Part shown: positions 40,014 through 41,123 of the stretch, piece by piece
Layout of the letters: each line of letters begins with the position of its first letter
Position numbering within the stretch: the first letter of the stretch is position 1
Assembly (NCBI RefSeq): GCF_003939025.1
Contig: NZ_RQIH01000004.1
Span: 310,001-374,000, forward strand
Source: Rhizobium sophoriradicis
GTDB taxonomy: Bacteria > Pseudomonadota > Alphaproteobacteria > Rhizobiales > Rhizobiaceae
Length of the DNA stretch: 64,000 bases
Direction: 5' to 3'
Program-made: the position numbers and the translations under genes
The notes under the pieces: model-generated
What the model saw: only the letters and a program-made list of their open reading frames with translations
The model's database searches: none
What the model was told of the DNA's origin: nothing

Positions 40014-40294
40014 GTGCTAATTTCGGCGAGATTGATTTTTCGACGGCCGCCGCTCGCTTCCGGAGCGGGTGGGGGGCTTCACATAAAATGGCACAGATAT
40101 ACGCTAAGCGCTTTGGACATCGGAAACTCCGATCTTTTGGCGCAACGGCCGCAGCCCTCCGGCCGTCGTGGAGGCGCGATCCGAGAGCGCAGGCCCCTGT
40201 CAAACAAGATGTTTTGCCGACAGGCAGCTTTCCGACGAACTGCAGCGCGACCAATGTCCGGAAAGCCGTGGCGGACATTCGTGCTTTCGAGACT

Positions 40295-40801
40295 TCAGTT
40301 ACCTTTAATGCGTGCCCGAAGCTTGAGGAGATAAGACCTGGCCTTCCAAGCGAATAGCGCAAAGCTGATGTTTACAGCCACTGCAACGGTGACAACGGTC
40401 GCAAGCGCCCACAGACTGCCGCTTAAGAAGCTGCCGATAGTCAGTAGCAAGACATCTGCGACGATCAGCACTCCCCATCCTGGTCCGGCGTTAATTTGAC
40501 GTTGCAGGGACAGCAGCGACGCGCGCCGAGATTGCTGAAGCTCCATCGCCCGGGCTATAAACTTGTTGAGCGGATAATTGGCTTCCCGATCCTTGATCGA
40601 AAAGCACACCTCCAACTCGTACTGGACGTCATCCAGAAAAGCGCGGAACCTACGAAGCCCTCGAAAGCTGTCGTAGAGCGCACCCTTCCTTTTGGGATCG
40701 GCCAACAAAAAGTCGAGAAAGTGGTCTTCGTCGTAGGGTGCGCCCGGCGTCGCGCGGTGCTTCTCGAAAAGGCGAAGAATTTTAGTTCGGGCTTCAGTCA
40801 T
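40295..40801 (-). CDS. Small two-helix membrane protein within the inverted-repeat element
   Basis: A 168-residue protein I do not recognise. A charged N-terminal half (KILRLFEKHRATPG, GALYDSFRGLRRFRAFLDDVQYELEVCFSIKDREANYPLNKFI) is followed by a probable helical hairpin in the membrane (VLIVADVLLLTIGSFLSGSLWALATVVTVAVAVNISFALFAW) and a basic tail. ATG 40801 with GGGGAAG upstream is preferred over the longer frame. It lies inside the TIR-flanked unit, likely in an operon with the ORF upstream. The function is unknown. Confidence 0.6.
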   Translation of the reverse strand: MTEARTKILRLFEKHRATPGAPYDEDHFLDFLLADPKRKGALYDSFRGLRRFRAFLDDVQYELEVCFSIKDREANYPLNKFIARAMELQQSRRASLLSLQRQINAGPGWGVLIVADVLLLTIGSFLSGSLWALATVVTVAVAVNISFALFAWKARSYLLKLRARIKGN

Positions 40802-40830
40802 GCTTGCTTCCCCAACGTCCAACTCGTTGT

Positions 40831-41058
40831 TCAATGATAATCCTTGCAAAAACCCGTTGCGCCGATTTCCGCATGTTTGATTGTTACGCCAGTCCGAACG
40901 TCTCCTTTTTCACACACCCACACCGTTAGCGGATTCTGTCCGGACGCGGCAACCTTGCCGTCGAACCTGCGGCAGATTCCGACGGAGGATCGGACGCGTC
41001 GAAGGTGGCAAGCGGCTATTCCTGCTCCAATGTGCGACAAACAGGTGTTTTTAGACAC
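40831..41058 (-). CDS. Small ORF within the inverted-repeat element
   Basis: A possible 75-residue protein starting at GTG 41058 (AAGGA a few bases upstream) and ending 30 bp before the membrane-protein gene. It has six cysteines, with a C-terminal half (FDGKVAASGQNPLTVWVCEKGDVRTGVTIKHAEIGATGFC) that looks protein-like. It might be a small secreted or metal-binding protein, or a decayed remnant. I recognise no family. Confidence 0.35.
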   Translation of the reverse strand: MSKNTCLSHIGAGIAACHLRRVRSSVGICRRFDGKVAASGQNPLTVWVCEKGDVRTGVTIKHAEIGATGFCKDYH

Positions 41059-41123
41059 CCGCCATCCTTAGCGTATATCTTTGCCCATTTTATGTGACGG
41101 ACCCGGGTGGCTTGGCGCCATCC

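What the first reader, a model, noticed from the sequence alone, without database searches (positions are those of the whole stretch)
40079..41097. 1-kb unit bounded by 31-bp inverted repeats and carrying unknown small proteins
The ends are nearly identical inverted repeats with an outer TCACAT. Inside are a two-helix membrane protein and a Cys-rich ORF, but no transposase. It may be a non-autonomous mobile unit or a toxin-immunity-like cassette inserted between copA and treY.
Basis: seen in the sequence. Interest (0 to 1): 0.6.

Follow-up and report, generated by a model that had tools for sequence, protein, structure and literature searches.

The report
Stranded Tn3-type cassette carrying one gene
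A 1-kb piece of DNA sits between two ordinary Rhizobium genes; it appears to be the cut-down remnant of a large Tn3-type jumping gene that lost its own transposase and carries one small membrane-protein gene of unknown function, a known kind of element with an unknown passenger.

Summary
The unit is real and slightly larger than reported: 40072-41104 (1033 bp), with 37/38-bp Tn3-type inverted repeats and a perfect 5-bp target duplication (GGGTG). Its left end keeps the last 22 codons of a Tn3-family transposase gene; its right end matches the opposite end of the same transposon subgroup (Acetobacter, Novosphingobium). A related Rhizobium genome has the uninterrupted site with one copy of the target. 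It is therefore a non-autonomous Tn3-family element: a mobile insertion cassette, or TIME derivative. The genome holds one copy, and no cognate transposase was found. Two of 148 genomes of the genus carry it, and five named plasmid records, all at this site: it looks like one old insertion, now stranded. It carries one credible gene (40295-40801, minus) for a 168-aa protein with a conserved N-terminal part and two predicted C-terminal membrane helices, without a match above cut-off in four family libraries and with two remote relatives found. The 'Cys-rich ORF' is frameshifted in three of seven sequences and is probably not a gene, so the toxin-immunity reading is not supported. A new member of a known kind; mobility is inferred from anatomy, not shown, and the passenger's function is open.

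The parts
40067..40071 (.). target-site duplication GGGTG, left copy
   Evidence: identical to 41105-41109; single copy (GGGCG) in the empty site of G015/L016
40072..40108 (+). left terminal inverted repeat, 37 bp (one base short of the 38-bp form)
   Evidence: a G next to 40089 that the window, Kim5 and CC511 lack is present in IE4771, K102, IE4803 and R. bangladeshense
40104..40176 (-). remnant of the 3' end of a Tn3-family tnpA (last 22 codons and stop recognisable)
   Evidence: 18 of 22 residues identical to the end of the Acetobacter TnpA; DNA of 40072-40176 85.8% identical over 106 aligned positions
40188..40260 (+). res-like relic, tentative: resembles the stretch upstream of tnpR in the Acetobacter transposon
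   Evidence: Smith-Waterman 111, 0 of 200 shuffles as high; the two tiles over it rank first of 1102 window tiles. Against: with the Novosphingobium res 7 of 200 shuffles as high and not among the 8 best tiles listed
40295..40801 (-). passenger gene, 168 aa: conserved N-terminal part and two predicted C-terminal membrane helices
   Evidence: annotated as hypothetical protein in RefSeq records; no indel in 7 sequences; remote relatives in G373 and Persicobacter
40807..40813 (-). ribosome-binding-site-like GGGGAAG, 5 nt before the ATG
   Evidence: seen in the sequence
40831..41058 (-). the 'Cys-rich ORF': probably not a gene
   Evidence: frameshifted in 3 of 7 sequences; no family match
41027..41104 (-). 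cargo-side end of the same Tn3 subgroup, including the 38-bp right terminal inverted repeat at 41067-41104
   Evidence: 83-86% identical over 65-73 bp to ends in Sphingobium cloacae, Sphingopyxis terrae, Acetobacter pasteurianus 386B and Novosphingobium EMRT-2; aligned
41105..41109 (.). target-site duplication GGGTG, right copy

Best explanation
The unit is a non-autonomous Tn3-family element (a mobile insertion cassette, or TIME derivative with one passenger gene). Shown by sequence: both ends of one Tn3 subgroup, a 3' fragment of that subgroup's tnpA, a 5-bp target duplication, and an empty site in a relative. Inferred: an ancestral transposon lost tnpR and most of tnpA while a small membrane-protein gene lay between its ends; a TnpA supplied in trans by an intact transposon moved it by replicative transposition into the copA-treY gap in the R. 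etli / sophoriradicis / bangladeshense group; the cointegrate was resolved by TnpR at a res relic or by host recombination. It is now stranded: one copy, no cognate transposase found, and one repeat short of a base in this lineage. The passenger probably sits in a membrane with its N-terminal part in the cytoplasm; what it does is not known.
For: Repeats and target duplication. Ends match annotated Tn3-family transposons. The Acetobacter TnpA has the Pfam Tn3 DDE domain at E = 6.3e-140 and its 6862-bp transposon is flanked by TGATA on both sides. tnpA remnant, 18 of 22 residues identical. Empty site with one copy of the 5-bp target in a 93%-identical relative. Whole element in 2 of 148 genomes of the genus (repeats) and in 5 plasmid records, all at the same locus. 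G+C 55% against 66% (copA) and 63% (treY). Passenger frame kept: 0 of 9 indel events fall in its 507 bp, P = 0.002.
Against: No movement was observed: one copy in the own genome, the same site in every carrier seen. No TnpA of this subgroup found: in the own genome one Tn3 match of 64 profile positions; in the genus the best full-length TnpA is 42% identical to the Acetobacter one, fragments up to 53% (at most 5 candidates scored per genome). The Novosphingobium EMRT-2 transposon shows no matching 5-bp duplication. The passenger has 13 amino-acid-changing and 2 silent changes, more than the neutral ratio (chance of so few silent ones 0.13), so no sign of overall purifying selection; its density of changes is not significantly below that of the rest of the element (15 of 507 against 26 of 526, P = 0.11). 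The res-like stretch lies opposite to the orientation that a simple deletion of the Acetobacter layout predicts and is not supported by the Novosphingobium res.
Confidence: 0.93

Rival explanations
1. An ordinary intergenic region of Rhizobium with a chance inverted repeat and small spurious ORFs.
For: Single copy, the same place in every carrier.
Against: 47 of 148 genomes of the genus have the joined flanks in one piece across the junction at 76% identity or more, without the insert (my count of the listing; 146 of 148 have some match to the joined flanks, many of them short and to one side only). Ends match Tn3 transposons; 5-bp duplication.
Confidence: 0.02
2. A toxin-immunity or toxin-antitoxin cassette: two small genes kept together because one protects against the other.
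For: A small membrane protein and a second open frame beside it; a Tn3-family transposon with a toxin-antitoxin system, Tn4662a, is described (abstract of PMC4133298).
Against: The second frame is frameshifted in 3 of 7 sequences; no family match above cut-off for the frames searched.
Confidence: 0.04
3. A refinement of the best explanation, not an alternative to it: the passenger is a selected accessory gene, for example a one-gene membrane effector or immunity factor, and the cassette spreads among bean-nodulating Rhizobium partly by homologous recombination through its flanks.
For: Frame free of indels; residues 10-79 free of amino-acid change in 7 sequences, longest change-free run 70 codons, permutation P = 0.009, within the part shared with the remote relatives. 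Between the window and R. bangladeshense the element is 96.8-98.2% identical and most flanking segments 89.5-96.2%. The two remote relatives lie about 90 bp from a tRNA-Leu gene and near a transposase frame (IS256-type by recall).
Against: 13 amino-acid-changing to 2 silent changes. The cueR segment is also 98.2% identical, and against IE4803, K102 and CC511 the element is not clearly more alike than its flanks. Relatives are few: 1 other of 297 genomes of the order, none among the 397 other genomes of the phylum sample, 1 plasmid record outside Rhizobium.
Confidence: 0.3

Closest known systems
TIMEs and TIME derivatives (TIME-RES, TIME-COMP), Szuplewska et al. 2014, PMC4133298
   Same: 38-bp Tn3-family inverted repeats, no transposase, 5- or 6-bp duplications, usually one copy per genome; TIME-RES (1186 bp) is likewise a one-module derivative (seen: abstract, section 22 and the first parts of sections 21 and 26)
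   Different: Simple TIMEs are about 262 bp without ORFs, mostly in Pseudomonas, with repeats like those of the Tn5044 subgroup; this one is 1033 bp, has a tnpA remnant and carries an unrelated passenger; trans-mobilisation is not shown here
Tn3-family mobile insertion cassettes of Xanthomonas (PMC6304161)
   Same: Genes flanked by long Tn3-family repeats without transposition enzymes, whose transposition must depend on a cognate transposase from a related transposon (seen: one passage of the Conclusion)
   Different: The Xanthomonas passengers are linked with pathogenicity (title and recall); this passenger is a membrane protein without a known family
Tn3-family transposon of Acetobacter pasteurianus 386B plasmid Apa386Bp2 (record NZ_HF677572.1, 7185-14046)
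   Same: Both ends and the tnpA 3' end are homologous (85.8% over 106 bp, 84.8% over 66 bp); 5-bp duplication
   Different: 6862 bp, with annotated tnpA and recombinase genes and other cargo
364-bp element of Komagataeibacter nataicola NZ_CP118673.1 (134834-135197)
   Same: Same inner repeat sequence, 5-bp duplication AACCT, no gene listed inside it (the gene table of this collection is incomplete)
   Different: No passenger listed; size near that of a simple TIME

Membership tests
Tn3-family derived element | about 38-bp terminal inverted repeats homologous to those of Tn3-family transposons | tested here: met
Tn3-family derived element | 5-bp target-site duplication | tested here: met
   GGGTG on both sides; single copy in the empty site
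TIME / Tn3-type mobile insertion cassette | no transposase gene of its own | tested here: met
   only the last 22 codons of tnpA recognisable; no other frame of transposase size inside
TIME / Tn3-type mobile insertion cassette | can be moved by a Tn3-family transposase in trans | not testable with these tools
   needs a transposition assay; no cognate TnpA found in the own genome
Tn3-type mobile insertion cassette | passenger gene between the repeats | tested here: met
   40295-40801, no indel in 7 sequences
simple TIME | about 260 bp and without ORFs (PMC4133298) | tested here: not met
   1033 bp with one gene: at most a TIME derivative
TIME-RES | carries tnpR and a res site | tested here: not met
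   no recombinase match among the frames searched; a tentative res-like relic only
toxin-antitoxin / toxin-immunity cassette | two conserved adjacent genes, one of them a recognised toxin or antitoxin | tested here: not met
   one conserved frame; no family match above cut-off

The most novel reading that the evidence does not exclude
The passenger belongs to a rare, undescribed family of small membrane effectors or immunity proteins (conserved N-terminal part with a C-terminal membrane hairpin) that travels on quite different vehicles: a Tn3-type cassette in Rhizobium, the neighbourhood of a tRNA-Leu gene in another genus of the order, and the neighbourhood of an insertion sequence on a Bacteroidota plasmid. 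The cassette would then be a one-gene defence or competition module.
Probability: 0.15. Interest if true: 0.5.

Novelty: new member of a known kind. Interest (0 to 1): 0.3.

Why it matters
It is a Tn3-type cassette in Rhizobium with an unusually complete set of marks (both ends, transposase stub, target duplication, empty site), so it shows how such a cassette can arise from a large transposon and persist after the transposase is gone. It also supplies a pair of ends for a trans-mobilisation test and a passenger protein that the family libraries searched here do not describe. It does not change what is known about the kind of element.

Tried and rejected
Chance repeat or ordinary intergenic region: rejected by empty sites and end homology. 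Two-gene toxin-immunity unit: rejected because the second frame is broken in 3 of 7 sequences. Recently active multicopy element: not supported, one copy in the own genome, repeats in 2 of 148 genomes of the genus and 1 of 385 of a class sample, the own genome. Partner transposase in the genus: 47 of 148 genomes have a Tn3-type TnpA match at E <= 1e-30, but the best full-length one is 42% identical to the Acetobacter TnpA, so none is shown to be a partner.

Leads that went nowhere. Family libraries for the passenger: sub-threshold Pfam DUF1435 (E 0.15) and NCBIfam VPAMP_CTERM (E 0.14), nothing in PADLOC or PHROGs. For the G373 relative, TgpA_N at E 0.0052, below its cut-off. Solved structures: best E 0.086. 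Phages: no match. Viral contigs: none. Structure model: mean pLDDT 48, pTM 0.30, so no fold search was made and its all-helical prediction carries little weight. Terminator scan: none; promoter scan: 1 match against 0.4 expected, and on the + strand, not that of the passenger. The left interior folds only slightly better than shuffles (z -1.5). The genus of G373: matches in 2 of 37 genomes, itself and one weak match at E 0.0062. res test: against the Acetobacter res the right interior and the passenger also scored above most shuffles (7 and 11 of 200 as high), well below the left interior (0 of 200). Papers: searches found 0 papers, and one search found 1 (PMC6409357, listing only, about Pseudomonas by its title), so no Rhizobium report of such an element was found in the held library with these terms. 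Searches served to find precedents (listings); PMC6542083 was seen in passages only. An earlier count said 10 indel events; after merging adjacent columns there are 9, the number used here.

Full report
What is there. Aligned outwards they run 7 bp further on both sides: GGGGGCTTCACATAAAATGGCACAGATATACGCTAAG (37 bp, 40072-40108) and GGGTCCGTCACATAAAATGGGCAAAGATATACGCTAAG (38 bp, complement of 41067-41104). Directly outside both lies GGGTG. The unit is thus 40072-41104, 1033 bp, with a 5-bp target duplication.

What the ends are. A search of plasmid records gave matches in 12 records: five whole copies in Rhizobium and seven end-only matches in other Alphaproteobacteria. The left end is homologous to the tnpA end of a transposon of Acetobacter pasteurianus 386B (85.8% over 106 bp) and of Novosphingobium EMRT-2 (84.9% over 86 bp), and it still encodes the last 22 residues of the transposase, 18 of them identical to the Acetobacter protein. 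The right end is homologous to the opposite end of the same two transposons (84.8% over 66 bp and 83.1% over 65 bp) and to ends in Sphingobium cloacae and Sphingopyxis. The Acetobacter element is 6862 bp, carries annotated recombinase and Tn3 transposase genes, and has TGATA on both sides; its TnpA has the Pfam Tn3 DDE domain. The Novosphingobium element shows no matching duplication. The two ends of the unit and the four ends of these transposons align over the whole repeat. So the unit has the two different ends of one Tn3 subgroup and a stub of its transposase, as expected from internal loss.

Empty site and distribution. The joined flanks give some match in 146 of 148 genomes of the genus, many of them short and to one side only. 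By my count of the listing, 47 genomes span the junction in one piece at 76% identity or more, and some more distant ones at 64-68%. In G015 (93% identical) the junction reads TCCGGAGCGGGCGGC, one copy of the target and no insert. In the own genome and in G008 the flank matches break at the junction with the element between; G010 also breaks there, with about 140 bp of other sequence and no match to the element. The G008 locus lies letter for letter in a record of R. bangladeshense strain 1002. The repeat pattern is found in 2 of 148 genomes of the genus and in 1 of 385 of a class sample, the own genome. Five plasmid records (Kim5, CC511, IE4771, K102, IE4803) carry the element at the same place. 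(three candidates scored per genome) also listed three genomes with short weak matches only (G046, G059, G081). The simplest reading is one insertion event, not an active multicopy element.

How it spread. Between the window and R. bangladeshense the element is 96.8-98.2% identical, most flanking segments 89.5-96.2%, cueR 98.2% and a 14-bp gap 86%. Against IE4803, K102 and CC511 the element is not clearly more alike than its flanks. Local recombination between species is possible but not shown.

Stranding. The own genome has one Tn3 TnpA match, of 64 profile positions, and the best full-length TnpA in the genus is 42% identical to the Acetobacter one, with fragments up to 53%. The left repeat lacks one G in the window, Kim5 and CC511 that the other four sequences have, so the end seems to have decayed after insertion in this lineage.

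res relic. The stretch 40188-40260 resembles the region before tnpR in the Acetobacter transposon (score 111, 0 of 200 shuffles as high), and its tiles rank first among 1102 tiles of the window. With the Novosphingobium res the score is 72 (7 of 200 shuffles as high), and no tile of this stretch is among the eight best listed. The orientation is opposite to that expected from a simple deletion. I treat it as tentative.

The passenger. The minus-strand gene 40295-40801 is annotated as a hypothetical protein in the RefSeq records. In seven sequences (six distinct, since Kim5 equals the window here) it has no indel, while 9 indel events fall in the other 526 bp of the element (P = 0.002). Changes are 13 amino-acid-changing and 2 silent (chance of so few silent ones under neutrality 0.13), so there is no sign of overall purifying selection; but none of the 13 falls in residues 10-79 (longest change-free run 70, permutation P = 0.009). 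This lies within the part shared with two remote relatives: a 174-aa protein of G373 (27% identity, E 1.8e-6) and a 105-aa frame of Persicobacter (33%, E 1e-12; aligned). The first lies about 90 bp from a tRNA-Leu gene, the second near a transposase frame (IS256-type by recall). No family library gives a match above cut-off, and the best solved-structure match has E 0.086. The structure model is poor (pLDDT 48). Hydropathy is high across residues 105-154, enough for two membrane helices.

The Cys-rich ORF. 40831-41058 on the minus strand is frameshifted in CC511, K102 and R. bangladeshense (3 of 7). It is probably not a gene, and with it the toxin-immunity reading loses its second partner.

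Comparison with what is known. Tn3-derived miniature elements (TIMEs) and their derivatives have 38-bp repeats, no transposase, 5- or 6-bp duplications and usually one copy per genome (PMC4133298: abstract, section 22 and the first parts of sections 21 and 26 seen; PMC13367494: abstract and passages seen). Genes between Tn3 repeats without transposition enzymes are called mobile insertion cassettes in Xanthomonas (PMC6304161, one passage seen). The present unit fits the latter description and the wider TIME family as proposed, except that trans-mobilisation is untested. A 364-bp element with the same inner repeat and a 5-bp duplication exists in Komagataeibacter nataicola.

Verdict. The kind of element is known; the passenger protein is not.

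Noticed in passing
L058 535-898 (NZ_CP118673.1 134834-135197): A 364-bp element in Komagataeibacter nataicola with the same inner repeat sequence and a 5-bp duplication AACCT: apparently a simple TIME of the same Tn3 subgroup.
   Followed up: partly
L014 1255-1779: Remote relative of the passenger (174 aa) about 90 bp from a tRNA-Leu gene in another genus of the order; a search of 37 genomes of its genus found it there and one weak match.
   Followed up: partly
L046 2989-4543: Persicobacter plasmid frame related to the N-terminal part of the passenger, followed by a transposase frame; apparently cut off before the membrane helices.
   Followed up: no
L048, L049: Ends of the same Tn3 subgroup lie near copper genes in Sphingobium cloacae and Novosphingobium EMRT-2. 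In the window the element happens to lie next to copA, but there the copA-treY order is also present without it in relatives.
   Followed up: no
40072-41104, compared with L015: The element is somewhat more alike between the window and R. bangladeshense (96.8-98.2%) than most flanking segments (89.5-96.2%), which hints at local recombination; the other strains do not show it clearly.
   Followed up: partly
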